Shown piece by piece: positions 1,950 to 64,000 of a DNA stretch of 64,000 bases. Made by a program: the position numbers and the translations under genes. Source of the DNA: Cymodocea nodosa (taxonomy: Eukaryota > Streptophyta > Magnoliopsida > Alismatales > Cymodoceaceae); the NCBI GenBank assembly GCA_036874045.1, contig CM072335.1, positions 9,382,001-9,446,000 of the forward strand, in the 5' to 3' direction. Under the pieces are notes generated by a model. It had not been told where the DNA came from. It did no database searches and saw nothing but the letters and a program-made list of their open reading frames with translations. Each line of letters begins with the position of its first letter. Position 1 is the first letter of the stretch.

Positions 1950-1950
1950 T

Positions 1951-3510: not shown

Positions 3511-3513
3511 TAA

Positions 3514-4140: not shown

Positions 4141-4242
4141 ACAAAAGCACTGGATCTCATCAAAACACCTAAGTTAAATGAGTTTGGGCGAAAGTAGTAC
4201 TAAGAAGGGTGACATCTTGGGAAGTCCTTGTGTTACACTCCT
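4141..4242 (+). pseudogene. 5' truncated 5S-like copy at array edge
   Basis: The first 5S-like copy lacks about its first 18 nt; similarity begins at ACAAAAGCAC (4141). It is also the most altered copy: AACACCTAAG replaces AACTCCAAAG, and the A-box region reads TTAAATGAGTTTGGG. The 3' end and T-run are normal. The array edge therefore lies inside the 5S part, not at a monomer boundary. Confidence 0.8.
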
Positions 4243-4628
4243 TTTTGCATCATGGTAGGATGGTCTTTTTGTAAATCAAACTTCCACTAAGAGATGACCC
4301 TATTATTGATAATGGTTTCCAAAATTAATGTCATATATTGAATGACATCATGATCAAAATGTTTCATTATAACGGTGGTTGATATCGAAAGGGTTGTATT
4401 CTCTTACTAAAATTTTGCAACATCTTAACTTACAACAATTAGAGTACCATGAAATGAGAAACGTTTAAAATCCGTTGTGTCGTGTTTTTTTAAGAGAGTT
4501 GTAATCATTGCAAATGAGTTGAAATAATTGGATCTTCCTTTACAAACTTTAAATAATCTAATTTAACAAGTTTCTAGTATGAATTATCATAGTTTTCGAT
4601 CTTTCTATAATGATAAATTTAGATGTTT

Positions 4629-4748
4629 GTGTGCAACCATACCGACACAAAATAACAGGATCTCATCAAAACTCCAAAGTTAAATGTGTTTGGGTGAGAG
4701 TAGCACTAAGATGGGTGACCTCTTGGGAAGACCTTGTGTTGCACACTT
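4629..4748 (+). pseudogene. 5S rRNA pseudogene, first full-length copy
   Basis: Full 120-nt 5S-like sequence. GTGCAACCATACCGACAC replaces the array-typical GTGCGACCATACCAACAC, and AATAACAGGATC replaces AAGCACTGGATC. The C-box region (GATGGGTGACCTC) is intact. Confidence 0.85.
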
Positions 4749-6520
4749 TTTTGCATCATGGTAGGATGATCTTTTTGTAAATCAAACTTCCTCTAAGAGA
4801 CGACGCTGTTATTCATAATGGTTTCCAAAATAAATGTCATATTATTAATGACATCATGATCAAAATGTTCCATTATAATGTTGGTTGATATCGAAAGGGT
4901 TGTATTCTCTTACTAAAATTTTGTAACATCTTAACTTACAACAATTAGAGTACCATGAAATGAGAAACGTTTAATATCCGTTTTGTCGTGATGTTTTTTT
5001 AAGATAGTTGTAATCGTTGCAAATGAGTTGAAATAATTGGATATTCATTTACAAACTTTAAATAATCTAATTCAAGAAGTTTCTAGTGTGAATTATCATA
5101 GTTTTCGATCTTTCTATAATTATAAATTTAGAAATGTGTGTACGACCATACCAACACAAAAGCACTGGATCTCATCAGAACTCCAAAGTTAAATGTATTT
5201 GGGGGAGAGTAGTACTAAAAAGGGTGACCTCTTGGGAAGTCCTTTTCTTGCACTCCTTTTTGCATCATTGTAGGATGGTCATTTTGTAAATCAAACTTCC
5301 ACTAAGAGACGAACCTATTATTAATAATGGTTTCCAAAATAAATGTCATACATTGAATGACTTCATGATCAAAATGTTTCATTATAACGGAGGTTGATAT
5401 CGAAAAGGTTGTATTCTCTTACTAAAATTTTGTAACATCTTAACTTACAACAATTAGAGTACCATGAAATGAGAAACGTTTAAAATCCGTTGTGTCGTGT
5501 TTTTTTAAGAGAGTTGTAATCATTGCAAATGAGTTGAAATAATTGGATCTTCCTTTACAAACTTTAAATAATCTAATTCAACAAGTTTCTAGTGTGAATT
5601 ATCATAGTTTTCGATCTTTCAATATTGATAAATTTAGAAGTTTTTGTGCGACCATACCAACACAAAAGCACTGGATCTCATCGAAACTCCAAAGTTAAAT
5701 GTGTTTGGGCGAGAGTAGTACTAAGATGGGTGACCTCTTGGGATGTCCTTGTGTTGCACTCTTTTTTGCATCATGGTAGGATGATCTTTTTGTAAATCAA
5801 ACTTCCACTAAGAGAGGACCCTACTATTCATAATGGTTTCCAAAATTAATGTCATATTATTAATGACATCATGATCAAAATGTTCCATTATAACGTTGGT
5901 TGATATCAAAAGGGTTGTATTCTCTTACTAAAATTTTGTAACATCTTAACTTACAACAATTAGAGTACGATGAAATGAGAAAGGTTTAATATCCGTTGTG
6001 TCGTGATGTTTTTTTAAGATAGTTGTAATCATTGCAAATTAGTTGAAATAATTGGATATTCATTTACAAACTTTAAATAATCTAATTCAACAAGTTTTTA
6101 GTGTGAATTATCATAGTTTTCGATCTTTCTGTAACGATAAATTTAGAAATGTGTGTGCGACCATACCAACACAAAAGCACTAGATCTCAAAAGAACTCCA
6201 AAGTTGAATGTGTTTGGGCGAGAGTAGTACTAAGAAGGGTGACCTCTTGGGAAGTCCTTGTGTTAAACTCCTTTTTGCATCATGATAGGATGATCTTTTT
6301 GTAAATCAAACTTTAACTAAGAGACGACCCTATTATTCATAATGGTTTCCAAAATTAATGTCATATTATTAATGACAACATGATCAAAATGTTCCATTGT
6401 AACGTTGGTCGATATCGAAAGGGTTGTATTCTCTTACTAAAATTTTGTAACATCTTAACTTACAACAATTAGAGTACAATGAAATGAGAAACGTTTAATA
6501 TCTGTTGTATCGTGATGTTT

Positions 6521-9500
6521 TTTTAAGATAGTTGTAATCATTGCAAATGAGTTGAAATAATTGGATATTCATTTACAAACTTTAAATAATCTAATTCGAC
6601 AAGTTTCTAGTGTGAATTATCATAGTTTTCGATCTTTCTGTAACGATAAATTTAGAAATGTGTGTGCGACCATACCAATGCAAAAGCACTGGATCTCATC
6701 AGAACTCCAAAGTTGAATGTGTTTGGGCGAGAGTAGTACTAAGAAGGGTGACCTCTTGGGAAGTCCTTATGTTACACTCCTTTTCGCATCATGGTAGTAT
6801 GATCTTTTTGTAAATCAAACTTCCACTAAGAGACGACCCTATTACTCATAATGGTTTCCAAAATTAATGTCATATTATTAATGACATCATGATCAAAATG
6901 TTCCATTATAACGTTGGTTGATATCGAAAGGGTTGTATTCTCTTACTAAAATTTTGTAACATCTTAACTTACAACAATTAGAGTACGATGAAGTGAGAAA
7001 CGTTTAATATCTGTTGTGTCATGGTGTTGTTTTAAGAGAGTTGTAAACATTTCAAATGAGTTGAAATAATTGGATCTTCATTTACGAACTTTAAATAATC
7101 CAATTCAACAAGTTTCTAGTGTGAATTATCATAGTTTTCGATCTTTCTGTAACGATAAATTTAGAAATGTGTGTGTGACCATACCAACACGAAAGCACTG
7201 GATCTCATCAGAACCCCAAAGTTAAATGTGATTGGGGGAGAGTAGTACTAAGATGGGTGACCTCTTGTGAAGTCCTTGGGTTGCACTCCTTTTTGCATCA
7301 TGGTAGGATGGTCTTTTCGTAAATCAAACTTCCACTAAGAGACGACCCTATTATTGATAATGGTTTCCAAAATTAATGTCATATATTGAATGACATCATG
7401 ATCAAAATGTTTCATTATAACGGGGGTTGATATCGAAAGGGTTGTATTCTCTTACTAAAATTTTGTAACATCTTGACTTACAACAATTAGAGTACCAAGA
7501 AATGAGAAACGTTTAATATCCGTTGTGTCGTGGTGTTTTTTTAAGAGAGTTGTAATCATTGCAAATGAGTTGAAATAATTGGATCTTCATTTACAAACTT
7601 TAAATAATCCAGTTCAACAAGTTTCTAGTGTGAATTATCATAGTTTTCGATCTTTCTTTAACGATAAATTTAGAAATTTGAGTGCGACCATAGCAACACA
7701 AAAGCACTGGATTTCTTCAGAACTCCAAAGTTAAATATGTTTGGGAGAGAGTAGTATTAAGATGGGTGACCTCTTGGCAAGTCCTTGTGTTGCACTCCTT
7801 TTTGCATCATGGTACGATGGTATTTTTGTAAATCAAACTTCCACTAAGAGACGACCCTATTATTGATAATGCTTACCAAAATTAATGTCATATATTGAAT
7901 GACATCATGATCAAAATGTGCCATAATAACGGTGGTTGATATCGAAAGGGTTCTATTCTCTTACTAAAATTTTGTAACATCTTGACTTACAACAATTAGA
8001 GTTCCATGAAGTGAGAAACGTTTAATATCTGTTGTGTCGTGCTGTTTTTTTAAGAGAGTTGTAATCATTGCAAATGAATTGAAATAATTGGATCTTCTTT
8101 TACAAACATTAAATAATCCAATTCAACAAGTTTCTAGTGTGAATTATCATAGTTTTCGATCTTTCTGTCACGATAAATTTAGAAATGTGTGTGCGACCAT
8201 ACCAACACAAAAGCACTGGATCTCATCAGAACTGCAAAGTTAAATGTGTTTGGGCGAGAGTAGTACTAAGATGGGTGACCTCTTGGGTAGTCCTTGTGTT
8301 GCACTCCTTTTTGCATCATGGTAGGATGGTCTTTTTGTAAATCAAACTTTCACTAAGAGACGACCCTATTATTAATTGGATCTTCATTTACAAACTTTAA
8401 ATAATCTAATTCAACAAGTATCTAGTGTCAATTGTCATAGTTTTCGATCTTTCTTTAATGACAAATTTAAAAATGTGTGTATCACCATACCAACACAAAA
8501 GCATTGGATCTCATCAGAAATTCTTTGCTAAATGTGTTTTGGCGAGAGTATTACTAAGATGGGTGACCTCTAGGGAAGTCCTTGTGTTGCACACTTTTTT
8601 GCATCATGGTAGGATGGTCTTTTTGTAAATCAAACTCTCATTGAGAGACGACCCTCTTATTGATAATGGTTTCCGAAATGGTGGTTGATATCGAAATTGT
8701 TGTATTCCCTTACTAAAATTTTGTAACATCATAACTTACAACAATTAGAGTACCATGAAATGAGAAACGTTTAATATCCGTTGTGTCGTGATGGTTTTTT
8801 AAGAGAGTTGTAATCATTGCAAATTTGTTGAAATAATTGGATCTTAATTTACAAACTTTAAATAATCTAATTCAACAACTTTCTAGTGTGAATTATCATA
8901 GTTTTCGATCTTTCTTTAATGATAAATTTAGAATTGTGCGTGCGACCATATCAACTCAAAAGTACCGTATCTCATCAGAACTTCAAAGTTAAATGTGTTT
9001 GGGCGAGAGTAGTACTAAAATGGGTGACCTCTTGAGAAGTCCTTGTGTTGCACTTCTTTTTGCATCATGGTAGGATGGTCTTTTTGTAAATCAAACACAC
9101 ACTAAGAGACGACCCTATTATTGATAATGGTTTCCAAAATTAATGTCATATATTGAATGACATCAAGATCAAAATGTTCAATTATAACGGTGGTTGATAT
9201 CGAAAGGAATGTATTCTCTTACTAAAATTTTGTAACATCTTAACTTACAGCAATTAGAGTACCATGAAATGAGAAACGTTTAATATCCATTGTGTCGTGA
9301 TGTTTTTTTAAGAGAGTTGTAATCATTGCAAATGAGTTAAAATAATTTGATCTTCATTTACAAACTATAAATAATCTAATTCGACAACTTTCTAGTGTGA
9401 ATTATCATAGTTTTATATCTTTCTGTAATGATAAATTTAGTAATGCGTGTGCGACCATATCAATACAAAAGCACTGGATCTCATCAAAACTCCAAAGTTA

Positions 9501-9944
9501 AATGTGTTTGGGCGAGAGTAGTACTAAGATTGGTGACCTCTTTGGAAGTCCTTGTGTTGCACTCCTTTTTGCATCATGGTAGGATGGTCTTTTTGTAAAT
9601 CAAATACTCACTACGAGACGAACCTATTATTGATAATGGTTTCCAAAATTAATGTCATATATTGAATGACATCATGATCAAAATGTTCCTTTATAACGGT
9701 GGTTGATATCGAAAGGGTTGTATTCTATTACTAAAATTTTGTAACATCTTAACTTACAACAATTAGAGTACTAGGAAATGAGAAATGTTTAATAACCGTT
9801 GTGTCGTGATGTTATTTTAAGAGAGTCGTATTCTTTGAAATGAGTTGAAATAATTGGATCTTCATTGACAAACCTTAAATAATCTAATTCAACAAGTTTC
9901 TAGTGTCAATTATCATAGTTTTCGATCTTTCTGTAATGATGAAT
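6521..9944 (+). repeat. Long segmental duplication, left copy
   Basis: 5S-like starts: 6662, 7171, 7680, 8189, 8477, 8938, 9447. This segment recurs at 14903-18545 with shared private variants, such as the 48-bp shorter spacer after 8477/17077 and the TATATC in place of TCGATC before 9447/18047. The offset is about 8380 bp up to 8370 and 8600 bp afterwards, because this copy has lost about 221 bp of spacer near 8371 (step 8189 to 8477 only 288 bp). Similarity begins inside TTTTAAGATAG (6521) and ends near GATGAATT (9944). Confidence 0.85.
8477..8596 (+). pseudogene. 5S rRNA pseudogene with altered 5' end
   Basis: Reads GTGTATCACCATACC where other copies have GTGTGCGACCATACC, and AAATTCTTTGCTAAATG across the A-box, so this internal promoter element is badly damaged. 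The same changes occur in the duplicate at 17077, so they predate the duplication. Confidence 0.8.
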
Positions 9945-12900
9945 TCAATATTGTTTGTGCGACCATACCAACACAAAAGTACTAGATCTCATCAGAACTC
10001 CAAAGTTAAATGCGTTTGGCTGAGAGTAGTACTAAGATGTGTGACCTCTTGGGAAGTCCTTGTGTTGCACTCCTTTTTGCGCCATGGTAGGATGGTCTTT
10101 TTGTAAATCAAACACACACTAAGAGACGACCCTATTATTGATAATGGTTTCCAAAATTAATGTCAAATATTTAATGACATCATGATCAAAATGAGCCATT
10201 ATAACGTTGGATGATATCGAAAGGGTCGTATTCTCTTACTAAAATTTTGTAACTTCTTAACTTCCAACAATTAGGGTACCATGAAATGCGAAACGTTAAA
10301 TATCCGTTGTGTCGTGATTCTTTTTTAAAAGAGTTGCAATCTTTGAAAATGAGTTGAAATAATTGGAGCTTCATTGACAAACCTTAAATAATCTAATTCA
10401 ACAAGTTTCTAGTGTCAATTATCATAGTTTTCGATCTTTATGTAAAGATGAATTTAATATTGTGTGTGCGACCGTACCAACACAAAAGTACTGGATCTCA
10501 TCAAAACCCCAAAGTTAAACGTGTTTGGGCGAGAGTAGTACTAAGATGTGTGACCTCTTGGGAAGTCCTTGTGTTGCTCTCCTTTTTGCGTCATGGTAGG
10601 ATGGTCTTTTTGTAAATCAAACACACACTAAGAGACGACCCTATTATTGATAATGGTTTCCAAAATTAATGTCAAATATTCAATGACATCATGATCAAAA
10701 TGAGCCATTATAACGTTGGATGATATCGAAAGGGTCGTATTCTCTTACTAAAATTTTGTAACTTCTTAACTTCCAACAATTAGGGTACCAGGAAATGAGA
10801 AACGTTTAATATCCGTTGTGTCGTGATATTTTTTTAAAAGAGTTGTATTCTTTGAAAATGAGTTGAAATAATTGGATCTTCATTGACAAACCTTAAATAA
10901 TCTTTCAACAAGTTTCTAGTGTCAATTATCATAGTTTTCGATCTTTCTGTAATGATGAATTTAATATTGTTTGTGCGACCATACCAACACAAAAGCAGTA
11001 GATCTCATCAGAACTCCAAAGTTAAATGCGTTTGGCTGAGAGTAGTACTAAGATGGGTGACCTCTTTGGGAAGTCCTTGTGTTGCACTCCTCTTTGCATC
11101 ATGGTGGGTTGGTCTTTTTGTAAATCAAACACACATTAAGAGACGACCCTATTATTGATAATGGTTTCCAAAATTAATGTCAAATATTGAATGACATCAT
11201 GATCAAAATGTGCCATTATAAAGTTGGTTGATATCGAAAGGGTCGTATTCTCTAACAAAAATTTTGTTACTTCTTAACTTCCAACAATTAGGGTACCATG
11301 AAATGCGAAACGTTTAATATCCGTTGTGTCGTGATGTTCTTTTAAAAGAATTGTATTCTTTGAAAATGAGTTGAAATAATTGGATCTTCATTGACAAACC
11401 TTAAATAATCTAATTCAACAAGTTTCTAGTGTCAATTATCATAGTTTTCGATCTTTCTATAATGATGAATTCAATATTGTGTGTGCGACCATACCAACAC
11501 AAAAGCACTGGATCTCATCAAAACTCCAAAGTTAAATGTATTTGGGCGAGTGTAGTACTAAGATGGGTGACCTCTTGGGAAGTCCTTGTGTTGCACATCT
11601 TTATGCATCATGGTAGGATGGTCTTTTTGTAAATCAAACACACACTAAGAGATGACCCTATTATTGATAATGGTTTCCAAAATTAATGTCATATATTGAA
11701 TGACATAATGATCAAAATGTTCCATTATAATGGGGGTTGATATCGAAACGGTTGTATTCTATTACTAAAATTTTGTAACATCTTAACTTACAACAATTAG
11801 AGTACTAGGAAATGAGAAACGTTTAATATCCGTTGTGTCGTGATGTTATTTTAAGAGAGTTGTAATCATTGCAAATGAGTTGAAATAATTGGATCTTCCT
11901 TTACAAACTTTAAATAATCTAATTCAACAACTTTCTAGTGTGAATAATCAATGTTTTCGATCTTTCTGTAATGATAAATTTCGAAATGTGTGTGCGACCA
12001 TACCAACACAAAAGCACTGGATCTCATCAGAACTCCAAAGTTAAAAGTGTTTGGGCGAGAGTAGTACTAAGATGGGTGACCTCTTGCGAAGTCCTTGTCT
12101 TGCACTCTTTTTTGCATCATGGTAGGATGGTATTTTTGTAAATCAAACACACACTAAGAGACGACCCTATTATTGATAATGGTTTCCAAAATTAATGTCA
12201 AATATTGAATGACATCATGATCAAAATGTGCCATCATAACGTTGGTTGATATCGAAAGAGTCGTATTCTCTTACTAAAATTTTTTAACTTCTTAACTTCC
12301 AACAATTAGGGTACCACGAAATGAGAAACGTTTAATATCTGTTGTGTCGTGATGTTCTTTTAAAAGGGTTGTATTCTTTGAAAATGAGTTGAAATAATTG
12401 GATCTTCATTGACAAACCTTAAATAATCTAATTCAACAAGTTTCTAGTGTCAATTATCATAGTTTTCGATCTTTCTGTAATGATGAATTCAATATTGTGT
12501 GTGCGACGATACCAACACAAAAGTACTGGATCTCATCAGAACTCTAAAGTTAAATGTGTTTGGGCAAGAGTAGTACTAAGATGGGTCACCTCTTGGGAAG
12601 TCCTTGTGTTGCACATCTTTATGCATCACGGTAGGATGGTCTTTTTGTAAATCAAACACACACTAAGAGACGACCCTATTATTGATAATGGTTTCCAAAA
12701 TTAATGTCATATATTGAATGACATGATGATCAAAATGTTCCATTATAATGGTGGTTGATATTGAAACGGTTGTATTCTATTACTAAAATTTTGTAACATC
12801 TTAACTTACAACAATTAGAGTACTAGGAAATGAGAAACGTTTAATATCCGTTGTGTCGTGATGTTATTTTAAGAGAGTTGTAATCATTGCAAATGAGTTG

Positions 12901-14902
12901 AAATAATTGGATCTTCGTTTACAAACTTTAAATAATCTAATTCAACAACTTTCTAGTGTGAATAATCAATGTTTTCGATCTTTCTGTAATGATAAATTTC
13001 GAAATGTGTGTGCGACCGTACCAATACAAAAGCACTCGATCTCATCAGAACTCCAAAGTTAATGGTGTTTGGGCGAGAGTAGTACTAAGATGGGTGACCT
13101 CTTGGGAAGTCCTTGTGTTGCACTTTTTTTTGCATCATGGTAGGATGGTCTTTTTGTAAATCAAACACACACTAAGAGACGACCCTATTGTTGATAATGG
13201 TTTCCAAAATTAATGTCAAATATTAAATGACATCATGATCAAAATGTGCCATTATAACGTTGGTTGATATCGAAAGGGTCGTATTCTCTTACTAAAATTT
13301 TGTAACTTCTTAACTTCCAACAATTAGGGTACCAGGAAATGAGAAACGTTTAATATCCGTTCTATCGTGATGTTTTTTTAAAAGAGTTGTATTCTTTGAA
13401 AATGAGTTGAAATAATTGGATATTCATTGACAAACCTTAAATAATCTAATTCAACAAGTTTCTAGTGTCAATTATCATAGTTTTTGATCTTTCTGTAATG
13501 ATGAATTCAATATTGTCTGTGCGACCATACCAACACAAAACCACTAGATCTCTTCAAAACTCCAAAGTTAAATGTGTTTGGGCGAATGTAGTACTAAGAT
13601 GGGTGACCTCTTGGGAAGTCCTTGTGTTGCACATCTTTATGCATCATGGTAGGATGGTCTTTTTGTAAATCAAACACACACTAAGAGACGACCCTATTGT
13701 TGATAATGGTTTCCAAAATTAATGTCAAATATTAAATGACATCATGATCAAAATGTGCCATTATAATGTTGGTTGATATCGAAAGGTTCGTATTCTCTTA
13801 CTAAAATTTCGTAACTTCTTAACTTCCAACAATTAGGGTACCAGGAAATGAGAAACGTTTAATATCCGTTCTGTCGAGATGTTATTTTAAGAGAGTTGTA
13901 ATCATTGCAAATGAGTTGAAATAATTGGATCTTCATATACAAACTTTAAATAATCTAATTCAACAACATTCTAGTGTGAATAATCAATGTTTTCGATCTT
14001 TCTGTAATGATAAATTTCGAAATGTGTGTGCGACCATACCAACGCAAAAGCACTGGATCTCATGAGAACTCCAAAGTTGAATGTGTTTGGGCGAGAGTAG
14101 TACTAAGAAGGGTGACCTCTTGGGAAGTCCTTATGTTACACTCCTTTTCGCATCATGGTAGTATGATCTTTTTGTAAATCAAACTTCCACTAAGAGACGA
14201 CCCTATTACTCATAATGGTTTCCAAAATTAATGTCATATTATTAATGACATCATGATCAAAATGTTCCATTATAACGTTGGTTGATATCGAAAGGGTTGT
14301 ATTCTCTTACTAAAATTTTGTAACATCTTAACTTACAACAATTAGAGTCCGATGAAGTGAGAAACGTTTAATATCTATTGTGTCATGGTGTTGTTTTAAG
14401 AGAGTTGTAAACATTTCAAATCAGTTGAAATAATTGGATCTTCATTTACGAACTTTAAATAATCCAATTCAACAAGTTTCTAGTGTGAATTATCATAGTT
14501 TTCGATCTTTCTGTAACTATAAATTTAGAAATGTGTGTGCGACCATACCAACGCAAAAGCACAGGATCTCATCAGAACTCCAAAGTTGAATGTGTTTGGG
14601 CGAGAGTAGTACTAAGAAGGGTGACCTCTTGGGAAGTCCTTATGTTACACTCCTTTTCGCATCATGGTATTATGATCTTTTTGTAAATCAAACTTCCACT
14701 AAGAGACGACCCTATTACTCATAATGGTTTCCAAAATTAATGTCATATTATTAATGACATCATGATCAAAATGTTCCATTATAACGTTGGTTGATATCGA
14801 AAGGGTTGTATTCTCTTACTAAAATTTTGTAACATCTTAACTTACAACAATTAGAGTACGATGAAGTGAGAAACGTTTAATATCTGTTGTGTCATGGTGT
14901 TG
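9945..14902 (+). repeat. 'ACACAC' spacer block with 1018-bp dimers
   Basis: 5S-like starts: 9955, 10464, 10971, 11481, 11990, 12499, 13008, 13517, 14026, 14535. From 11481 to about 14025 two monomer types alternate. Type G has GTGTCAATTATC, CATTGACAAACCTT and GATGAATTCAATATTG before the 5S; type T has GTGTGAATAATCAATG, CATTTACAAACTTT and GATAAATTTCGAAATG. The alternation gives a 1018-bp dimer (11481, 12499, 13517). At 14026 the array switches inside the 5S-like part to the 'TTCCAC' family, of which a nearly identical monomer is present three times (14026, 14535, 15044). Confidence 0.8.
10464..10583 (+). pseudogene. 5S rRNA pseudogene retaining an ancestral A-box CpG
   Basis: Full-length copy with TTAAACGTGTTTGGG in the A-box, so the C at 5S position 57 that most copies have lost to T is still present. 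It has ACCGTACC instead of ACCATACC near the 5' end. Confidence 0.8.
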
Positions 14903-17900: not shown

Positions 17901-18545
17901 TGTTTTTTTAAGAGAGTTGTAATCATTGCAAATGAGTTAAAATAATTTGATCTTCATTTACAAACTATAAATAATCTAATTCGACAACTTTCTAGTGTGA
18001 ATTATCATAGTTTTATATCTTTCTGTAATGATAAATTTAGTAATGCGTGTGCGACCATATCAATAGAAAAGCACTGGATCTCATCAAAACTCCAAAGTTA
18101 AATGTGTTTGGGCGAGAGTAGTACTAAGATTGGTGACCTCTTTGGAAGTCCTTGTGTTGCACTCCTTTTTGCATCATGGTAGGATGGTCTTTTTGTAAAT
18201 CAAATACTCACTACGAGACGAACCTATTATTGATAATGGTTTCCAAAATTAATGTCATATATTGAATGACATCATGATCAAAATGTTCCTTTATAACGGT
18301 GGTTGATATCGAAAGGGTTGTATTCTATTACTAAAATTTTGTAACATCTTAACTTACAACAATTAGAGTACTAGGAAATGAGAAATGTTTAATAACCGTT
18401 GTGTCGTGATGTTATTTTAAGAGAGTCGTATTCTTTGAAAATGAGTTGAAATAATTGGATCTTCATTGACAAACCTTAAATAATCTAATTCAACAAGTTT
18501 CTAGTGTCAATTATCATAGTTTTCGATCTTTCTGTAATGATGAAT
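14903..18545 (+). repeat. Long segmental duplication, right copy
   Basis: 5S-like starts: 15044, 15551, 16059, 16568, 17077, 17538, 18047. Counterpart of 6521-9944. It keeps the full spacer after 16568 that is partly deleted in the left copy. Compared by eye the two copies differ at few positions, far fewer than neighbouring monomers do, so the duplication is recent relative to monomer divergence. Confidence 0.85.
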
Positions 18546-47393: not shown

Positions 47394-47513
47394 GTGTGCG
47401 ACCATACCAACACAAAAGCACTAGATCTCATCAAAACTCTAAAGTTAAATGTGTTTGGGTGAGAGTAGTACTAAGATGGGTGACCTCTTGGGAAGTCCTT
47501 GTGTTGCACTCCT
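47394..47513 (+). pseudogene. 5S rRNA pseudogene, HOR position 8
   Basis: Full-length copy with CATCAAAACTCTAAAGTTAA and GGGTGAGAG; the latter loses the CpG in GGGCGAG that most copies keep. A slightly more diverged relative at 43677 marks the left limit of the HOR domain. Counterparts: 51112, 54830, 58548, 62266. Confidence 0.85.
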
Positions 47514-50500: not shown

Positions 50501-53500
50501 AATTTAGAAATGTGTGTGCGACCATACCGACACCAAAGCACGGGATCTCATTAGAAGACCAAAGTTAAATGTGTTTGGGCGAGAGTAGTACTAAGATGGG
50601 TGACCTCTTGAGAAGTCTTTGTGTTGCAATTCAACAAGTTTCTAGAGTGAATTATCATAGTTTTCGATCTTTATGAAATGACAAATTTAGAAATGAGTGT
50701 GCGACCATACCAACACAAAGGCACTGGCTCTCTTGGTAGGATGGCCTTTTGTAAATCAAACACTCACTAAGAGACGACCCTATTATTGATAATGGTTTCC
50801 AAAATTAATGTCAAGTATTGAATGACATCATGATCAAAATGAGCCATTATAATGTTGGTTGATATCGAAAGGGTTGTATTCTATTACTAAAATTTTGTAA
50901 CATCTTAACTTACGACAATTAGAATACCATGAAATGAGAAATGTTTAATATCCGTTGTGTCGTGATGTTATTTTAAGAGAGTTGTAATCATTGCAAATGA
51001 GTTGAAATAATTGGATCTTCATTTGCAAACTTTAAATAATCTAATTCAACAACTTTCTAGTGTGAATTATCATAGTTTTCTATCCTTCTGTAATGATGAA
51101 TTTGATATTGTGTGTGCGACCATACCAACACAAAAGCACTAGATCTCATCAAAACTCTAAAGTTAAATGTGTTTGGGTGAGAGTAGTACTAAGATGGGTG
51201 ACCTCTTGGGAAGTCCTTGTGTTGCACTCCTTTTTGCATCATGATAGGATGGTCTTTTTGTAAATCAAACACTCACTAAGAGACGACCCTATTATTGATA
51301 ATGGTTTCCAAAATTAATGTCATATATTGAGTGACATCATGATCAAAATGTTCCATTATAACGTTGGTTGATATCGAAAGGGTCATATTCTCTTACTAAA
51401 ATTTTGTAACTTCTTAACTTCCAACAATTAGGGTACCATGAAATGCGAAACGTTTAATATCCGTTGTGTCGTGATGTTTTTTTAAAAGAGTTGTAATCTT
51501 TGAAAATGAGTTGAAATAATTGGATCTTCATTGACAAACCTTAAATAATCTAAGTCAAAAAGTTTCTATTGTCAATAATCATATTGTTCGATCTTTATGT
51601 AATGATAAATTTAGAAATACGTGTGCGACCATACCAACACAAAAGCACTAGATTTCATCAGAACTTCAAAGTTAAATGTGTTTGGGCGAGAGTAGTACAA
51701 AGTTGGGTGACCTCTTGGGAAGTCCTTGTGTTGCACTCCTTTTTGCATCATGGTAGGACGTTATTTTTGTAAATCAAATACACAATAAGAGACGACCCTA
51801 TTATTGATATTGGTTTCCAAAATTAATGTCATATATAGAATGACATCATGATCAAAATGTTCCATTGTAACGGTGGTTGATATCGAAAGGGTTGTATTTT
51901 ATTACTAAAATTTTGTAACATCTTAACTTTCAACAATTAGAGTACCAGGAAATGAGAAACGTTTAATATCCGTTGTGTCGTGATGTTATTTTAAGAGAGT
52001 TGTAATCATTGCATATGAGTTGAAATAATTGGATCTTCATGTACAAACTTTAAATAATCTAATTCAACAACTTTCTAGTGTGAATTATCAATGTTTTCGA
52101 TTTTTATGTAATGATAAATTTAGAAATATGTGTGCGACCATACCAACACAAAAGCACTGGATTTCATCATAACTTTAAAGTTAAATGTGTTTGTGCGAGA
52201 GTACTACTAAGATGGGTGACCTCTTGGGAAGTCCATGTGTTTCACTCCTTTTTGCATCATGGTAGGACGATATTTTTGTAAATCAAATACACACTAAGGG
52301 ACGACCCTATTATTGATAATGGTTTTCAAAATTAATGTCATATATTGAATGACATCATGATCAAAATGTTCCATTATAACGGTGGTTTATATCGAAAGGG
52401 TTGTATTCTATTACTAAAATTTTGTAACATCTTAACTTACAACAATTAGAGTACCAGGAAATGAGAAACGTTTAATATCCGTTGTATCGTGATGTTATTT
52501 TAAGAGAGTTGTAATCATTGCAAATGAGTTGAAATAATTGGATCTTAATTTACAAACTTTAAATAATCTAATTCAACAACTTTCTAGTGTGAATTGTCAT
52601 AGTTTTCTATCTTTATGTATTGATGAATTTAATAATGTGTGTGCGACCATACTAACACAAAAGCACTGGATTTCATTAGAATTTCAAAGTTAAATGTGTT
52701 TGGGCGAGAGTAGTACTAAGATGGGTGACCTCTTGGGAAGTCCATGTGTTGAGCTCCTTTTTGCATCATGGTAGGATGGTCTTTTTGTAAATCAAACGCA
52801 CACTAAGAGACGACCCTATTATTGATAATGGTTTCCAAAATTAATGTCATATATTGAATGACACCATGATCAAAATGTTCCATTATAACGGTGGTCGATA
52901 TCGAAAGGGTTGTATTCTATTACTAAAATTTTGTAACATCTTAACTTACAACAATTAGAGTACCAGGAAATGAGAAACGTTTTATATCCGTTGTGTCGTG
53001 ATGTTATTTTAAAAGAGTTGTAATCATTGCAAATGAGTTGAAATAATTGGATCTTCATTTACAAACTTTGAATAATCTAATTCAACAACTTTCTAGTGTG
53101 AATTATCATAGTTTTCTATCATTCTGTAATGATGAATTTAATATTGTGTGTTCGACCATACCAACACAAACGCATTGGATCTCATCAAAACTCCAAAGTT
53201 AAATGTGTTTTGGCGAGAGTAGTACTAAGATGGGTGACCTCTTAGGAAGTCCTTGTGTTGCACTCCTTTTTGCATCATGGTAGGATGGTCTTTTTGTAAA
53301 TCAAACACACACTAAGAGACGACCCTATTATTGATAATGGTTTCCAAAATTAATGTCATATATTGAATGACATCATGATCAAAATGTTCCATTATAACGG
53401 TAGTTGATAGCGAAAGGGTTGTATTCTATTACTAAAATTTTGTAACATCTTAACTTACGACAATTAGAATACCATGAAATGAGAAACGTTTAATATCCGT

Positions 53501-56500
53501 TGTGTCGTGATGTTATTTTAAGAGAGTTGTAATCATTGCAAATGAGTTGAAATAATTGGATCTTCATTTGCAAACTTTAAATAATCTAATTCAACAACTT
53601 TCTAGTGTGAATTATCATAGTTTTCTATCCTTCTGTAATGATGAATTTGATATTGTGTGTGCGAATTATTGTGTGAATTATCAAAAATTTTGATCTTTCT
53701 GTAATGACAAATTTAGAAATGTGTGTGCGACCATACCAACACAAAAACATTGGATCTCATCAGGACTCCAAAGTTAAATGTGTTTGGGCGAGAGTAGTAC
53801 TAAGATGGGTGACCTCTTGGGAAGTCCTTGTGTTGCACTCCTTTTTGCATCATGGTAGGATGGTCTTTTTGTAAATCAAACACACACTAAGAGACGACCC
53901 TATTATTGATATCAGTTTCCAAAATTAAAGTCAAATGTTGAATGACAACATGATCAAAATGTGCCATTATAACGTTGGTTGATATCGAAAGGGTAGTATT
54001 CTCTTACTAAAATTTTGTAACATCTTAACTTACAACAAATAGAGTACCATGAAATGAGAAACATTTAATATCCGTTGTGTCGTGATGTTTTTTTAAGAGA
54101 GTTGTAATCATTGCAAATGAGTTGAAATAAATGGATCTTCATTTACAAACTTTAAATAATCTAATTCAACAAGTTTCTAGTGTGAATTATCATACTTTTC
54201 GATCTTTCTGTAATGACAAATTTAGAAATGTGTGTGCGACCATACCGACACCAAAGCACGGGATCTCATTAGAAGACCAAAGTTAAATGTGTTTGGGCGA
54301 GAGTAGTACTAAGATGGGTGACCTCTTGAGAAGTCTTTGTGTTGCAATTCAACAAGTTTCTAGAGTGAATTATCATAGTTTTCGATCTTTATGAAATGAC
54401 AAATTTAGAAATGAGTGTGCGACCATACCAACACAAAGGCACTGGCTCTCTTGGTAGGATGGCCTTTTGTAAATCAAACACTCACTAAGAGACGACCCTA
54501 TTATTGATAATGGTTTCCAAAATTAATGTCAAGTATTGAATGACATCATGATCAAAATGAGCCATTATAATGTTGGTTGATATCGAAAGGGTTGTATTCT
54601 ATTACTAAAATTTTGTAACATCTTAACTTACGACAATTAGAATACCATGAAATGAGAAATGTTTAATATCCGTTGTGTCGTGATGTTATTTTAAGAGAGT
54701 TGTAATCATTGCAAATGAGTTGAAATAATTGGATCTTCATTTGCAAACTTTAAATAATCTAATTCAACAACTTTCTAGTGTGAATTATCATAGTTTTCTA
54801 TCCTTCTGTAATGATGAATTTGATATTGTGTGTGCGACCATACCAACACAAAAGCACTAGATCTCATCAAAACTCTAAAGTTAAATGTGTTTGGGTGAGA
54901 GTAGTACTAAGATGGGTGACCTCTTGGGAAGTCCTTGTGTTGCACTCCTTTTTGCATCATGATAGGATGGTCTTTTTGTAAATCAAACACTCACTAAGAG
55001 ACGACCCTATTATTGATAATGGTTTCCAAAATTAATGTCATATATTGAGTGACATCATGATCAAAATGTTCCATTATAACGTTGGTTGATATCGAAAGGG
55101 TCATATTCTCTTACTAAAATTTTGTAACTTCTTAACTTCCAACAATTAGGGTACCATGAAATGCGAGACGTTTAATATCCGTTGTGTCGTGATGTTTTTT
55201 TAAAAGAGTTGTAATCTTTGAAAATGAGTTGAAATAATTGGATCTTCATTGACAAACCTTAAATAATCTAAGTCAAAAAGTTTCTATTGTCAATAATCAT
55301 ATTGTTCGATCTTTATGTAATGATAAATTTAGAAATACGTGTGCGACCATACCAACACAAAAGCACTAGATTTCATCAGAACTTCAAAGTTAAATGTGTT
55401 TGGGCGAGAGTAGTACAAAGTTGGGTGACCTCTTGGGAAGTCCTTGTGTTGCACTCCTTTTTGCATCATGGTAGGACGTTATTTTTGTAAATCAAATACA
55501 CAATAAGAGACGACCCTATTATTGATATTGGTTTCCAAAATTAATGTCATATATAGAATGACATCATGATCAAAATGTTCCATTATAACGGTGGTTGATA
55601 TCGAAAGGGTTGTATTTTATTACTAAAATTTTGTAACATCTTAACTTTCAACAATTAGAGTACCAGGAAATGAGAAACGTTTAATATCCGTTGTGTCGTG
55701 ATGTTATTTTAAGAGAGTTGTAATCATTGCATATGAGTTGAAATAATTGGATCTTCATGTACAAACTTTAAATAATCTAATTCAACAACTTTCTAGTGTG
55801 AATTATCAATGTTTTCGATTTTTATGTAATGATAAATTTAGAAATATGTGTGCGACCATACCAACACAAAAGCACTGGATTTCATCATAACTTTAAAGTT
55901 AAATGTGTTTGTGCGAGAGTACTACTAAGATGGGTGACCTCTTGGGAAGTCCATGTGTTTCACTCCTTTTTGCATCATGGTAGGACGATATTTTTGTAAA
56001 TCAAATACACACTAAGGGACGACCCTATTATTGATAATGGTTTTCAAAATTAATGTCATATATTGAATGACATCATGATCAAAATGTTCCATTATAACGG
56101 TGGTTTATATCGAAAGGGTTGTATTCTATTACTAAAATTTTGTAACATCTTAACTTACAACAATTAGAGTACCAGGAAATGAGAAACGTTTAATATCCGT
56201 TGTGTCGTGATGTTATTTTAAGAGAGTTGTAATCATTGCAAATGAGTTGAAATAATTGGATCTTAATTTACAAACTTTAAATAATCTAATTCAACAACTT
56301 TCTAGTGTGAATTGTCATAGTTTTCTATCTTTATGTATTGATGAATTTAATAATGTGTGTGCGACCATACTAACACAAAAGCACTGGATTTCATTAGAAT
56401 TTCAAAGTTAAATGTGTTTGGGCGAGAGTAGTACTAAGATGGGTGACCTCTTGGGAAGTCCATGTGTTGAGCTCCTTTTTGCATCATGGTAGGATGGTCT

Positions 56501-59500
56501 TTTTGTAAATCAAACGCACACTAAGAGACGACCCTATTATTGATAATGGTTTCCAAAATTAATGTCATATATTGAATGACATCATGATCAAAATGTTCCA
56601 TTATAACGGTGGTCGATATCGAAAGGGTTGTTTTCTATTACTAAAATTTTGTAACATCTTAACTTACAACAATTAGAGTACCAAGAAATGAGAAACGTTT
56701 TATATCCGTTGTGTCGTGATGTTATTTTAAAAGAGTTGTAATCATTGCAAATGAGTTGAAATAATTGGATCTTCATTTACAAACTTTGAATAATCTAATT
56801 CAACAACTTTCTAGTGTGAATTATCATAGTTTTCTATCATTCTGTAATGATGAATTTAATATTGTGTGTTCGACCATACCAACACAAACGCACTGGATCT
56901 CATCAAAACTCCAAAGTTAAATGTGTTTTGGCGAGAGTAGTACTAAGATGGGTGACCTCTTAGGAAGTCCTTGTGTTGCACTCCTTTTTGCATCATGGTA
57001 GGATGGTCTTTTTGTAAATCAAACACACACTAAGAGACGACCCTATTATTGATAATGGTTTCCAAAATTAATGTCATATATTGAATGACATCATGATCAA
57101 AATGTTCCATTATAACGGTAGTTGATAGCGAAAGGGTTGTATTCTATTACTAAAATTTTGTAACATCTTAACTTACGACAATTAGAATACCATGAAATGA
57201 GAAACGTTTAATATCCGTTGTGTCGTGATGTTATTTTAAGAGAGTTGTAATCATTGCAAATGAGTTGAAATAATTGGATCTTCATTTGCAAACTTTAAAT
57301 AATCTAATTCAACAACTTTCTAGTGTGAATTATCATAGTTTTCTATCCTTCTGTAATGATGAATTTGATATTGTGTGTGCGAATTATTGTGTGAATTATC
57401 AAAAATTTTGATCTTTCTGTAATGACAAATTTAGAAATGTGTGTGCGACCATACCAACACAAAAACATTGGATCTCATCAGGACTCCAAAGTTAAATGTG
57501 TTTGGGCGAGAGTAGTACTAAGATGGGTGACCTCTTGGGAAGTCCTTGTGTTGCACTCCTTTTTGCATCATGGTAGGATGGTCTTTTTGTAAATCAAACA
57601 CACACTAAGAGACGACCCTATTATTGATATCAGTTTCCAAAATTAAAGTCAAATGTTGAATGACAACATGATCAAAATGTGCCATTATAACGTTGGTTGA
57701 TATCGAAAGGGTAGTATTCTCTTACTAAAATTTTGTAACATCTTAACTTACAACAAATAGAGTACCATGAAATGAGAAACATTTAATATCCGTTGTGTCG
57801 TGATGTTTTTTTAAGAGAGTTGTAATCATTGCAAATGAGTTGAAATAAATGGATCTTCATTTACAAACTTTAAATAATCTAATTCAACAAGTTTCTAGTG
57901 TGAATTATCATACTTTTCGATCTTTCTGTAATGACAAATTTAGAAATGTGTGTGCGACCATACCGACACCAAAGAACGGGATCTCATTAGAAGACCAAAG
58001 TTAAATGTGTTTGGGCGAGAGTAGTACTAAGATGGGTGACCTCTTGAGAAGTCTTTGTGTTGCAATTCAACAAGTTTCTAGAGTGAATTATCATAGTTTT
58101 CGATCTTTATGAAATGACAAATTTAGAAATGAGTGTGCGACCATACCAACACAAAGGCACTGGCTCTCTTGGTAGGATGGCCTTTTGTAAATCAAACACT
58201 CACTAAGAGACGACCCTATTATTGATAATGGTTTCCAAAATTAATGTCAAGTATTGAATGACATCATGATCAAAATGAGCCATTATAATGTTGGTTGATA
58301 TCGAAAGGGTTGTATTCTATTACTAAAATTTTGTAACATCTTAACTTACGACAATTAGAATACCATGAAATGAGAAATGTTTAATATCCGTTGTGTCGTG
58401 ATGTTATTTTAAGAGAGTTGTAATCATTGCAAATGAGTTGAAATAATTGGATCTTCATTTGCAAACTTTAAATAATCTAATTCAACAACTTTCTAGTGTG
58501 AATTATCATAGTTTTCTATCCTTCTGTAATGATGAATTTGATATTGTGTGTGCGACCATACCAACACAAAAGCACTAGATCTCATCAAAACTCTAAAGTT
58601 AAATGTGTTTGGGTGAGAGTAGTACTAAGATGGGTGACCTCTTGGGAAGTCCTTGTGTTGCACTCCTCTTTGCATCATGATAGGATGGTCTTTTTGTAAA
58701 TCAAACACTCACTAAGAGACGACCCTATTATTGATAATGGTTTCCAAAATTAATGTCATATATTGAGTGACATCATGATCAAAATGTTCCATTATAACGT
58801 TGGTTGATATCGAAAGGGTCATATTCTCTTACTAAAATTTTGTAACTTCTTAACTTCCAACAATTAGGGTACCATGAAATGCGAGACGTTTAATATCCGT
58901 TGTGTCGTGATGTTTTTTTAAAAGAGTTGTAATCTTTGAAAATGAGTTGAAATAATTGGATCTTCATTGACAAACCTTAAATAATCTAAGTCAAAAAGTT
59001 TCTATTGTCAATAATCATATTGTTCGATCTTTATGTAATGATAAATTTAGAAATACGTGTGCGACCATACCAACACAAAAGCACTAGATTTCATCAGAAC
59101 TTCAAAGTTAAATGTGTTTGGGCGAGAGTAGTACAAAGTTGGGTGACCTCTTGGGAAGTCCTTGTGTTGCACTCCTTTTTGCATCATGGTAGGACGTTAT
59201 TTTTGTAAATCAAATACACAATAAGAGACGACCCTATTATTGATATTGGTTTCCAAAATTAATGTCATATATAGAACGACAGCATGATCAAAATGTTCCA
59301 TTATAACGGTGGTTGATATCGAAAGGGTTGTATTTTATTACTAAAATTTTGTAACATCTTAACTTTCAACAATTAGAGTACCAGGAAATGAGAAACGTTT
59401 AATATCCGTTGTGTCGTGATGTTATTTTAAGAGAGTTGTAATCATTGCATATGAGTTGAAATAATTGGATCTTCATGTACAAACTTTAAATAATCTAATT

Positions 59501-62500
59501 CAACAACTTTCTAGTGTGAATTATCAATGTTTTCGATTTTTATGTAATGATAAATTTAGAAATATGTGTGCGACCATACCAACACAAAAGCACTGGATTT
59601 CATCATAACTTTAAAGTTAAATGTGTTTGTGCGAGAGTACTACTAAGATGGGTGACCTCTTGGGAAGTCCATGTGTTTCACTCCTTTTTGCATCATGGTA
59701 GGACGATATTTTTGTAAATCAAATACACACTAAGGGACGACCCTATTATTGATAATGGTTTTCAAAATTAATGTCATATATTGAATGACATCATGATCAA
59801 AATGTTCCATTATAACGGTGGTTTATATCGAAAGGGTTGTATTCTATTACTAAAATTTTGTAACATCTTAACTTACAACAATTAGAGTACCAGGAAATGA
59901 GAAACGTTTAATATCCGTTGTGTCGTGATGTTATTTTAAGAGAGTTGTAATCATTGCAAATGAGTTGAAATAATTGGATCTTAATTTACAAACTTTAAAT
60001 AATCTAATTCAACAACTTTCTAGTGTGAATTGTCATAGTTTTCTATCTTTATGTATTGATGAATTTAATAATGTGTGTGCGACCATACTAACACAAAAGC
60101 ACTGGATTTCATTAGAATTTCAAAGTTAAATGTGTTTGGGCGAGAGTAGTACTAAGATGGGTGACCTCTTGGGAAGTCCATGTGTTGAGCTCCTTTTTGC
60201 ATCATGGTAGGATGGTCTTTTTGTAAATCAAACGCACACTAAGAGACGACCCTATTATTGATAATGGTTTCCAAAATTAATGTCATATATTGATTGACAT
60301 CATGATCAAAATGTTCCATTATAACGGTGGTCGATATCGAAAGGGTTGTATTCTATTACTAAAATTTTGTAACATCTTAACTTACAACAATTAGAGTACC
60401 AGGAAATGAGAAACGTTTTATATCCGTTGTGTCGTGATGTTATTTTAAAAGAGTTGTAATCATTGCAAATGAGTTGAAATAATTGGATCTTCATTTACAA
60501 ACTTTGAATAATCTAATTCAACAACTTTCTAGTGTGAATTATCATAGTTTTCTATCATTCTGTAATGATGAATTTAATATTGTGTGTTCGACCATACCAA
60601 CACAAACGCACTGGATCTCATCAAAACTCCAAAGTTAAATGTGTTTTGGCGAGAGTAGTACTAAGATGGGTGACCTCTTAGGAAGTCCTTGTGTTGCACT
60701 CCTTTTTGCATCATGGTAGGATGGTCTTTTTGTAAATCAAACACACACTAAGAGACGACCCTATTATTGATAATGGTTTCCAAAATTAATGTCATATATT
60801 GAATGACATCATGATCAAAATGTTCCATTATAACGGTAGTTGATAGCGAAAGGGTTGTATTCTATTACTAAAATTTTGTAACATCTTAACTTACGACAAT
60901 TAGAATACCATGAAATGAGAAACGTTTAATATCCGTTGTGTCGTGATGTTATTTTAAGAGAGTTGTAATCATTGCAAATGAGTTGAAATAATTGGATCTT
61001 CATTTGCAAACTTTAAATAATCTAATTCAACAACTTTCTAGTGTGAATTATCATAGTTTTCTATCCTTCTGTAATGATGAATTTGATATTGTGTGTGCGA
61101 ATTATTGTGTGAATTATCAAAAATTTTGATCTTTCTGTAATGACAAATTTAGAAATGTGTGTGCGACCATACCAACACAAAAACATTGGATCTCATCAGG
61201 ACTCCAAAGTTAAATGTGTTTGGGCGAGAGTAGTACTAAGATGGGTGACCTCTTGGGAAGTCCTTGTGTTGCACTCCTTTTTGCATCATGGTAGGATGGT
61301 CTTTTTGTAAATCAAACACACACTAAGAGACGACCCTATTATTGATATCAGTTTCCAAAATTAAAGTCAAATGTTGAATGACAACATGATCAAAATGTGC
61401 CATTATAACGTTGGTTGATATCGAAAGGGTAGTATTCTCTTACTAAAATTTTGTAACATCTTAACTTACAACAAATAGAGTACCATGAAATGAGAAACAT
61501 TTAATATCCGTTGTGTCGTGATGTTTTTTTAAGAGAGTTGTAATCATTGCAAATGAGTTGAAATAAATGGATCTTCATTTACAAACTTTAAATAATCTAA
61601 TTCAACAAGTTTCTAGTGTGAATTATCATACTTTTCGATCTTTCTGTAATGACAAATTTAGAAATGTGTGTGCGACCATACCGACACCAAAGCACGGGAT
61701 CTCATTAGAAGACCAAAGTTAAATGTGTTTGGGCGAGAGTAGTACTAAGATGGGTGACCTCTTGAGAAGTCTTTGTGTTGCAATTCAACAAGTTTCTAGA
61801 GTGAATTATCATAGTTTTCGATCTTTATGAAATGACAAATTTAGAAATGAGTGTGCGACCATACCAACACAAAGGCACTGGCTCTCTTGGTAGGATGGCC
61901 TTTTGTAAATCAAACACTCACTAAGAGACGACCCTATTATTGATAATGGTTTCCAAAATTAATGTCAAGTATTGAATGACATCATGATCAAAATGAGCCA
62001 TTATAATGTTGGTTGATATCGAAAGGGTTGTATTCTATTACTAAAATTTTGTAACATCTTAACTTACGACAATTAGAATACCATGAAATGAGAAATGTTT
62101 AATATCCGTTGTGTCGTGATGTTATTTTAAGAGAGTTGTAATCATTGCAAATGAGTTGAAATAATTGGATCTTCATTTGCAAACTTTAAATAATCTAATT
62201 CAACAACTTTCTAGTGTGAATTATCATAGTTTTCTATCCTTCTGTAATGATGAATTTGATATTGTGTGTGCGACCATACCAACACAAAAGCACTAGATCT
62301 CATCAAAACTCTAAAGTTAAATGTGTTTGGGTGAGAGTAGTACTAAGATGGGTGACCTCTTGGGAAGTCCTTGTGTTGCACTCCTTTTTGCATCATGATA
62401 GGATGGTCTTTTTGTAAATCAAACACTCACTAAGAGACGACCCTATTATTGATAATGGTTTCCAAAATTAATGTCATATATTGAGTGACATCATGATCAA

Positions 62501-63792
62501 AATGTTCCATTATAACGTTGGTTGATATCGAAAGGGTCATATTCTCTTACTAAAATTTTGTAACTTCTTAACTTCCAACAATTAGGGTACCATGAAATGC
62601 GAGACGTTTAATATCCGTTGTGTCGTGATGTTTTTTTAAAAGAGTTGTAATCTTTGAAAATGAGTTGAAATAATTGGATCTTCATTGACAAACCTTAAAT
62701 AATCTAAGTCAAAAAGTTTCTATTGTCAATAATCATATTGTTCGATCTTTATGTAATGATAAATTTAGAAATACGTGTGCGACCATACCAACACAAAAGC
62801 ACTAGATTTCATCAGAACTTCAAAGTTAAATGTGTTTGGGCGAGAGTAGTACAAAGTTGGGTGACCTCTTGGGAAGTCCTTGTGTTGCACTCCTTTTTGC
62901 ATCATGGTAGGACGTTATTTTTGTAAATCAAATACACAATAAGAGACGACCCTATTATTGATATTGGTTTCCAAAATTAATGTCATATATAGAATGACAT
63001 CATGATCAAAATGTTCCATTATAACGGTGGTTGATATCGAAAGGGTTGTATTTTATTACTAAAATTTTGTAACATCTTAACTTTCAACAATTAGAGTACC
63101 AGGAAATGAGAAACGTTTAATATCCGTTGTGTCGTGATGTTATTTTAAGAGAGTTGTAATCATTGCATATGAGTTGAAATAATTGGATCTTCATGTACAA
63201 ACTTTAAATAATCTAATTCAACAACTTTCTAGTGTGAATTATCAATGTTTTCGATTTTTATGTAATGATAAATTTAGAAATATGTGTGCGACCATACCAA
63301 CACAAAAGCACTGGATTTCATCATAACTTTAAAGTTAAATGTGTTTGTGCGAGAGTACTACTAAGATGGGTGACCTCTTGGGAAGTCCATGTGTTTCACT
63401 CCTTTTTGCATCATGGTAGGACGATATTTTTGTAAATCAAATACACACTAAGGGACGACCCTATTATTGATAATGGTTTTCAAAATTAATGTCATATATT
63501 GAATGACATCATGATCAAAATGTTCCATTATAACGGTGGTTTATATCGAAAGGGTTGTATTCTATTACTAAAATTTTGTAACATCTTAACTTACAACAAT
63601 TAGAGTACCAGGAAATGAGAAACGTTTAATATCCGTTGTGTCGTGATGTTATTTTAAGAGAGTTGTAATCATTGCAAATGAGTTGAAATAATTGGATCTT
63701 AATTTACAAACTTTAAATAATCTAATTCAACAACTTTCTAGTGTGAATTGTCATAGTTTTCTATCTTTATGTATTGATGAATTTAATAATGT

Positions 63793-63912
63793 GTGTGCGA
63801 CCATACTAACACAAAAGCACTGGATTTCATTAGAATTTCAAAGTTAAATGTGTTTGGGCGAGAGTAGTACTAAGATGGGTGACCTCTTGGGAAGTCCATG
63901 TGTTGAGCTCCT
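63793..63912 (+). pseudogene. Last 5S rRNA pseudogene in the window (HOR position 3)
   Basis: Complete copy with the HOR-specific GTGTTGAGCTCC end; its spacer runs off the window at 64000, showing that the array continues. Confidence 0.85.
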
Positions 63913-64000
63913 TTTTGCATCATGGTAGGATGGTCTTTTTGTAAATCAAACGCACACTAAGAGACGACCCTATTATTGATAATGGTTTCCAAAATTAATG

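What the first reader, a model, noticed from the sequence alone, without database searches (positions are those of the whole stretch)
4141..64000. A 60-kb satellite made of decayed 5S rRNA genes
Every monomer is a 120-nt 5S-like sequence plus spacer, 125 copies by my count, all one way. Unit size equals ordinary plant 5S rDNA, but the gene part is uniformly changed at about 15 of 120 positions, shared across copies. So it is a 5S-derived family that was amplified after decay, not a set of working genes. 5S-derived satellites are known in some animals; a plant one with this size and layered higher-order structure would be worth describing.
Basis: partly seen in the sequence, partly recalled or inferred. 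Interest (0 to 1): 0.82.

Follow-up and report, generated by a model that had tools for sequence, protein, structure and literature searches.

The report
Plant satellite from old 5S genes
A plant chromosome carries a large tandem repeat built from copies of the small ribosomal RNA gene 5S that no longer look like working genes; such satellites are known, but here the changes common to the copies still respect the RNA's fold while later changes hardly do.

Summary
From 4141 to 64000 lies one head-to-tail array: 125 5S-like matches (115 near full, 3 partial, 7 stubs), modal unit 509 bp, all on the + strand, with recent higher-order repeats (3718 bp, 99.8%). It is a slice of a larger family: 2,357 matches to a spacer probe in the 374.6-Mb genome, none in the control; the 100 listed places lie on contigs C1 and C16. 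It does not look like working genes: the 5S part varies at least as much as the spacer in 6 of 6 sampled stretches. They keep 5S pairing better than chance (P 0.002 to 0.012 by measure), against a 5S reference that I recalled. Changes between copies hardly do (37 of 142 distinct changes kept, 19% expected). So the founder was probably a divergent but structured 5S gene, multiplied and then left to drift. The species' own 5S could not be compared: no ordinary 5S was found in this assembly, and 5.8S gave one weak match. A Cassandra-retroelement origin was tested without support. 5S-derived satellites are in print: a new member of a known kind.

The parts
4141..64000 (+). 5S-derived satellite array, 509-bp modal monomer (119-nt 5S-like part plus about 390-nt spacer), runs to the window's right end
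45391..63859 (+). Higher-order repeat of 3718 bp, about 5 copies at 99.8% identity; each holds 7 near-full 5S copies and one short stub, two of its intervals lengthened (575 and 598 bp)
   Evidence: spacing; stubs
32891..39860 (+). Tandem segmental duplication, lag 3469 bp, 99.2% identity
26891..33427 (+). Segmental duplication, lag 4536 bp, 98.9% identity (copies 26891-28891 and 31427-33427)
8391..18241 (+). Duplicated segment, lag 8600 bp, 99.4% identity (copies 8391-9641 and 16991-18241)
37539..37657 (+). Best 5S match of the window (106.2 bits), example of a near-full 5S-like part
46169..46294 (+). Duplication of a 66-bp unit across the spacer/5S junction that lengthens one interval of the 3718-bp repeat; recurs at 49887, 53605, 57323, 61041
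1..1974 (+). Flank: broken Ty1/copia fragments (GAG-pre-integrase, integrase, SH3, RVT_2) with internal stops
   Evidence: pieces between stops; stops: and the sequence

Best explanation
A divergent 5S rRNA gene unit (gene plus spacer, about 509 bp) was copied as a block and spread by tandem duplication and unequal exchange into a satellite of more than two thousand units, mainly in one chromosome region. Before that spread the founding gene had gathered about 14 substitutions that still allowed the 5S fold (shown by comparison with a recalled reference). After the spread little or no selection on the RNA is visible: gene and spacer drift alike, paired sites change more often than unpaired ones, and blocks of several units have been re-copied recently as higher-order repeats (shown). 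That the exchange was unequal crossing-over, that the excess of C-to-T and G-to-A changes comes from cytosine methylation, and that the copies are silent, is inference.
For: 5S diversity is not below spacer diversity in the window (0.0927 against 0.0904, 94 monomers) and is above it in 6 of 6 sampled stretches. The 5S match covers the whole 119 nt and is followed by a run of at least 4 T within 12 nt in 97 of 115 near-full copies, as expected of rDNA (recalled). Shared changes keep the structure: in the ancestral-like version 33 of 34 pairs are good against 28.9 expected (P 0.0027), and 3 pairs changed on both sides (P 0.012), all 3 still pairing (P 0.005); in the window consensus 32 of 34 against 28.0 (P 0.0066), 4 pairs changed on both sides (P 0.002), 3 of them pairing (P 0.008). 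Between copies 37 of 142 distinct pair changes keep pairing against 19% for random single changes, and changes per site are 0.071 at paired and 0.045 at unpaired sites (111 distinct gap-free 5S sequences of 161 monomers). 11 of 16 consensus changes are C>T or G>A; 4 of 6 canonical CpG are lost that way. Higher-order repeats at 98.9-99.8%; a 2034-bp repeat at 98.7% in L072. Family size: 2,023 + and 334 - probe matches, control 0.
Against: The canonical 5S reference is from my memory; two searches found no record to check it against. Counted by cells instead of distinct changes, 182 of 457 changed pairs still pair (40%); this counts inherited changes many times, but it is not the low figure. The internal promoter region 50-97 (position recalled) is less variable than the rest of the 5S part: 0.067 against 0.111 in the window (rank 24 of 500 windows) and rank 30 of 500 over all 161 monomers; the other five stretches rank 95 to 421 singly and 87 pooled. 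Upstream signals usual for plant 5S genes (recalled) are rare: TATA at -35 to -18 in 14 of 115, C at -1 in 13 of 115, which leaves open whether the founder was a working gene.
Confidence: 0.75

Rival explanations
1. The array is a long tandem array of a Cassandra TRIM retroelement: each unit is one LTR (which carries a 5S promoter) plus the internal region.
For: Cassandra tandem arrays are in print, up to 12 units shown (PMC7215508), and the predicted tandem unit is 509 bp in Garcinia mangostana and 508 bp in maize (its Table 2). The Cassandra box A consensus of that paper allows pyrimidines at two of the positions changed here (57, 61), though not the change at 56.
Against: The primer-binding site TGGTATCAGAGC is not seen: 10 matches with up to 3 mismatches in the window against 31.6 by chance, none at a fixed place shared by the monomers; the piece next to the 5S end shares 7 of 12 letters by my count. 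No GGGTGAC followed by the exact site within 25-55 or 55-85 nt anywhere in the genome; longer spacings and diverged sites were not tested. Array edges fall at different monomer positions. Of 14 dispersed box-C places sampled, 14 carry all or part of a SINE-like element and none shows the site.
Confidence: 0.12
2. These are the plant's working 5S genes; the species' 5S rRNA has changed.
For: No canonical 5S was found in the assembly: 34-mer core with up to 3 mismatches 0 hits, exact box-C 18-mer 2 hits, both inside satellite. Shared changes keep the fold. Three high-scoring copies still fold 5S-like.
Against: 5.8S gave only one weak partial match (39 of 8,173 candidates scored), so ribosomal arrays seem to be left out of the assembly. 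The 5S part is more variable than the spacer in 6 of 6 stretches, and 79 distinct 5S sequences among 115 copies is unlike a homogenised working locus.
Confidence: 0.08
3. The satellite comes from the genome's 5S-derived SINE.
For: The SINE head consensus shares 6 of the 14 ancestral-like satellite changes, 3.0 expected, P 0.04 (the 20 copies were picked by an exact box-C match, which fixes 13 sites).
Against: The SINE head differs from the satellite consensus at 35 to 48 of 119 in the 20 heads aligned in register, its body looks unrelated by eye, and the satellite consensus has no poly-A tail.
Confidence: 0.02

Closest known systems
5S-related satellite of the Plantago lagopus B chromosome (PLsatB)
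   Same: Plant satellite said to originate from amplification that includes 5S rDNA fragments (passages of PMC6410184; the original, Kumke et al. 2016, was not read)
   Different: The passages give a 325-bp monomer for cluster CL4, which I take to be the same repeat; B chromosome. Here 509 bp, on a 28.9-Mb contig, whole 119-nt 5S kept, layered higher-order repeats
PcP190 satellite of frogs
   Same: 120-bp conserved part similar to the transcribed 5S region plus a hypervariable part (start of the abstract of PMC11675491 in the listing)
   Different: Animal, about 190-bp unit; here the 5S part is not the conserved part
Hoplias malabaricus 5S-derived satellite
   Same: 5S-derived tandem repeat with a weaker predicted fold than working genes, on average 28 against about 50 kcal/mol (passages of PMC5437419)
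   Different: Fish; here, of 5 copies folded, 3 keep a 5S-like fold at -34.0 to -36.8 and 2 low-scoring ones give -28.1 and -31.4, against -43.9 kcal/mol for the recalled canonical 5S
Cassandra TRIM tandem arrays
   Same: 5S-spacer-5S pattern, unit near 509 bp in some species (PMC7215508)
   Different: No primer-binding site found, array edges at different phases; thousands of units instead of up to 12 shown

Membership tests
5S rDNA-derived satellite | Tandem monomers that contain a 5S-like stretch | tested here: met
   118 RF00001 matches, period 509
5S rDNA-derived satellite | Copies not under the constraint of working 5S genes | tested here: met
   5S diversity not below spacer diversity (6 of 6 stretches); a lower value in 50-97 in the window and pooled sets is the exception
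5S rDNA-derived satellite | Spacer derives from the species' own 5S spacer | not testable with these tools
   No ordinary 5S unit found in the assembly
Working 5S rDNA locus | Homogeneous gene part, spacer more variable | tested here: not met
Working 5S rDNA locus | Transcribed and found in ribosomes | not testable with these tools
   no RNA data here
Cassandra TRIM | Methionine-tRNA primer-binding site after the 5S-bearing LTR | tested here: not met
   Window. Genome: exact site and spacings of 25-85 nt after GGGTGAC only
Cassandra TRIM | LTR termini and target-site duplication | tested here: inconclusive
   Array edges at different phases, some bordered by other elements
Cassandra TRIM | 5S similarity region with boxes A, IE and C inside the LTR | tested here: inconclusive
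   Box C consensus is matched and box A misses by one letter (my comparison of the consensus); no LTR was shown
Cassandra TRIM | Polypurine tract before the 3' LTR | not tested
   no LTR boundary to place it
5S-derived SINE | 5S head, body and poly-A tail | tested here: not met
   The satellite consensus has no poly-A; the dispersed element does

The most novel reading that the evidence does not exclude
The satellite is a fossil of a real change in this plant lineage's 5S rRNA: the roughly 14 shared, pair-keeping substitutions were once, or still are, those of a working 5S gene type (a second 5S type or the species' own 5S), and the repeat preserves it in thousands of drifting copies. The partial overlap with the 5S head of the genome's SINE (6 of 14, P 0.04) would then be the same lineage signal.
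Probability: 0.2. Interest if true: 0.7.

Novelty: new member of a known kind. Interest (0 to 1): 0.42.

Why it matters
5S rRNA is highly conserved, and a passage read here says 5S variants and pseudogenes rarely occur in angiosperms (PMC7025596). A satellite with the whole gene kept lets one separate two phases, change that respects the fold and drift after amplification, within one genome. It also warns that FISH or read counts with a 5S probe could count thousands of non-genic copies as 5S rDNA.

Tried and rejected
Working 5S genes: rejected on diversity. Cassandra origin: tested by primer-binding site, genome-wide patterns and array edges, not supported; spacings above 85 nt, diverged sites and most dispersed loci were not tested. 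Functional 5S in the same genome: not found by RF00001 (47 of 10,838 candidates scored, all on C1), by the recalled 5S as DNA query (40 of 667 scored, best 88%) or by patterns; the one exact core 18-mer and the two box-C 18-mers lie in satellite. The weak 5.8S result points to rDNA left out of the assembly. Confirming the recalled 5S in viral contigs and genome contigs gave 0 hits. L075 (C1:9.65 Mb) holds no satellite.

Rows dropped before counts: one search kept 94 monomers of 490-520 bp out of 117 intervals; one search kept 161 monomers of 480-520 bp; the pair counts used 111 distinct 5S sequences without gaps; one search kept 20 SINE heads with fewer than 55 ungapped differences and so dropped L087 and L089. 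Differences are ungapped, so copies with an indel are overcounted (three reach 84).

Paper searches and papers: (listings). Passages only were seen of PMC8621578 and PMC9866396 (not relevant), PMC7025596, PMC11899658 (65, reference list only), PMC5437419, PMC6410184, PMC12046899 and PMC12692304.

Full report
What is there. The window's left part holds broken Ty1/copia fragments: the piece 1-1275 matches GAG-pre-integrase, integrase and SH3, and two pieces between stops (1279-1689, 1693-1974) match RVT_2. From 4141 to the right end runs one satellite array on the + strand. Rfam reports 118 5S matches over its gathering score; BLAST with the array's own consensus reports 125, of which 115 are near full length, 3 partial and 7 short stubs. 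The modal unit is 509 bp (78 of 117 intervals). Mean identity between the 97 window monomers aligned is 90.9%.

How far it extends. The window is C1:9382001-9446000 of a 374.6-Mb genome in 28 contigs. A 32-nt probe across the start of the spacer, with up to 3 mismatches, has 2,023 forward and 334 reverse matches and none in the control; 100 places are listed, on C1 and C16 only. The same probe finds 104 matches in the window, where 125 5S matches lie, so the family may hold about 2,800 units, about 1.4 Mb; this is extrapolation. The stretch at C1:9.65 Mb (L075) has none, so the region is interrupted.

Layered structure. Repeats of 3718, 3469, 4536 and 8600 bp lie in the window at 98.9 to 99.8% identity (bins over 96% only), and a 2034-bp repeat of four units at C1:10.30 Mb (98.7%). 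The identity at lag 509 is 72% without gaps. This is the usual sign of recent re-copying of blocks in a satellite (general knowledge).

Genes or not. In working 5S rDNA the gene is uniform and the spacer varies (general knowledge). Here nucleotide diversity is 0.0927 in the 5S part and 0.0904 in the spacer (94 monomers). In six stretches it is above the spacer in 6 of 6: window 0.094/0.084, L070 0.171/0.059, L071 0.120/0.103, L072 0.062/0.034, L073 0.067/0.045, L074 0.182/0.100 (97, 6, 9, 19, 17 and 13 monomers). One result goes the other way in part: positions 50-97 (the internal promoter, position recalled) vary less than the rest of the 5S part, rank 24 of 500 in the window and 30 of 500 pooled; the other five stretches rank 95 to 421 singly and 87 pooled.

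Two phases of change. Against a canonical plant 5S that I recalled, the window consensus has 16 changes, 11 of them C>T or G>A. The consensus of the stretches at C16, C1:10.85 and C1:11.36 Mb lacks the change at position 9, and at position 2 has the canonical G in two and an A in one, so about 14 changes are older. Among them 17-61 GC to AU, 29-48 CG to UA and 21-57 to AU are double changes that pair, and 68-107 becomes G-U; the window's 2-117 U-U is the one break that the window consensus adds. With changes dealt out at random over sites of the same base, the ancestral-like version keeps 33 of 34 pairs against 28.9 expected (P 0.0027) and has 3 pairing double changes against 0.53 (P 0.005); the window consensus keeps 32 against 28.0 (P 0.0066) and has 3 against 0.55 (P 0.008). 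Between copies the picture is close to neutral: 37 of 142 distinct pair changes keep pairing (26%) against 19% for random single changes without transition bias, and paired sites change more often than unpaired (0.071 against 0.045); counted by cells, 182 of 457 keep pairing, a figure swollen by shared descent. So the shared changes look selected for the fold, and the later ones hardly do.

Why the species' own 5S is not decisive here. The core 34-mer of the recalled 5S with up to 3 mismatches has no match in the genome, the exact 18-mer around box C has 2, both inside satellite, and the best match to the recalled 5S is 88% identical. But 5.8S gives only one weak partial match (39 of 8,173 candidates scored), so ribosomal arrays seem to be missing from this assembly; no conclusion about the functional 5S is drawn.

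Cassandra. PMC7215508 (abstract, introduction, results 2.1-2.4 and the start of 2.5, discussion, the first part of the methods, tables and legends) describes tandem arrays of Cassandra, a retroelement with 5S in its LTR, with up to 12 units, and a predicted 509-bp unit in Garcinia. PMC10853983 (abstract and results) reports a methionine primer-binding site and polypurine tract for its 81 Cassandras. The site is not found at a fixed place in the satellite, nor as an exact match within 25-85 nt after GGGTGAC anywhere in the genome. I therefore do not file it as Cassandra, while noting that longer spacings were not tested.

What is known. 5S-derived satellites are in print for fish and frogs and for one plant, Plantago lagopus (passages of PMC5437419, and PMC6410184; listing only for PMC11675491). 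In the listings I noticed no plant satellite of this unit size with the whole 5S kept, but the library lacks most subscription papers, and most listed papers were not opened.

In passing. The canonical box-C 13-mer has 174 matches in the genome, control 0; of the 100 places listed, 19 lie in the satellite region of C1. Of 14 dispersed places that I picked, 14 carry by eye all or part of one SINE-like element with a 5S-like head (L087 only the part from box C on), and 9 of 14 have a run of 8 or more A. At four places 14 to 52 kb from a contig end, its copies sit inside CCCTAAA-type telomere repeats, in 8 of 8 copies with poly-A joined to the repeat; beside one of them lies a LINE-type reverse transcriptase fragment (PF00078). 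These four were picked because two matches lay close together, so they are not a random sample.

Noticed in passing
L081-L094 (14 places on C1-C9 and C11, 801 bp each): A dispersed SINE-like element with a 5S-derived head (consensus of 20 heads differs from the recalled 5S at 35 of 119), a body of about 280 nt and often a poly-A tail; 14 of 14 picked box-C places carry all or part of it by eye. In the listing I noticed no 5S-derived SINE of a flowering plant; the papers were not opened.
   Followed up: partly
L077, L078, L079, L080 (C7:13.1 kb, C10:51.3 kb, C1:28.838 and 28.846 Mb): Copies of this 5S-SINE lie in CCCTAAA-type telomere repeats, poly-A joined directly to the repeat in 8 of 8 copies, beside other poly-A-ended pieces; a reverse transcriptase fragment (PF00078) follows in L077. 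It resembles telomere-repeat-targeted non-LTR elements such as silkworm TRAS/SART (recalled).
   Followed up: partly
L070 and L074, left edges of the satellite pieces (2623 and 2943 in the orientation; L070 reverse-complemented): By eye the same LTR-like end borders both pieces, so an LTR element seems to have inserted into the satellite.
   Followed up: no
G000:C11:13249238-13249344: Only 5.8S match reported for the assembly (39 of 8,173 candidates scored), partial, 52 bits; 35S rDNA seems left out of the assembly.
   Followed up: no
window 46169-46294 and four further copies: A 66-bp duplication across the spacer/5S junction, repeated in each 3718-bp repeat.
   Followed up: no
window 1975-4140: Further AT-rich retroelement-like pieces between the copia fragments and the satellite, seen by eye, not tested.
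   Followed up: no
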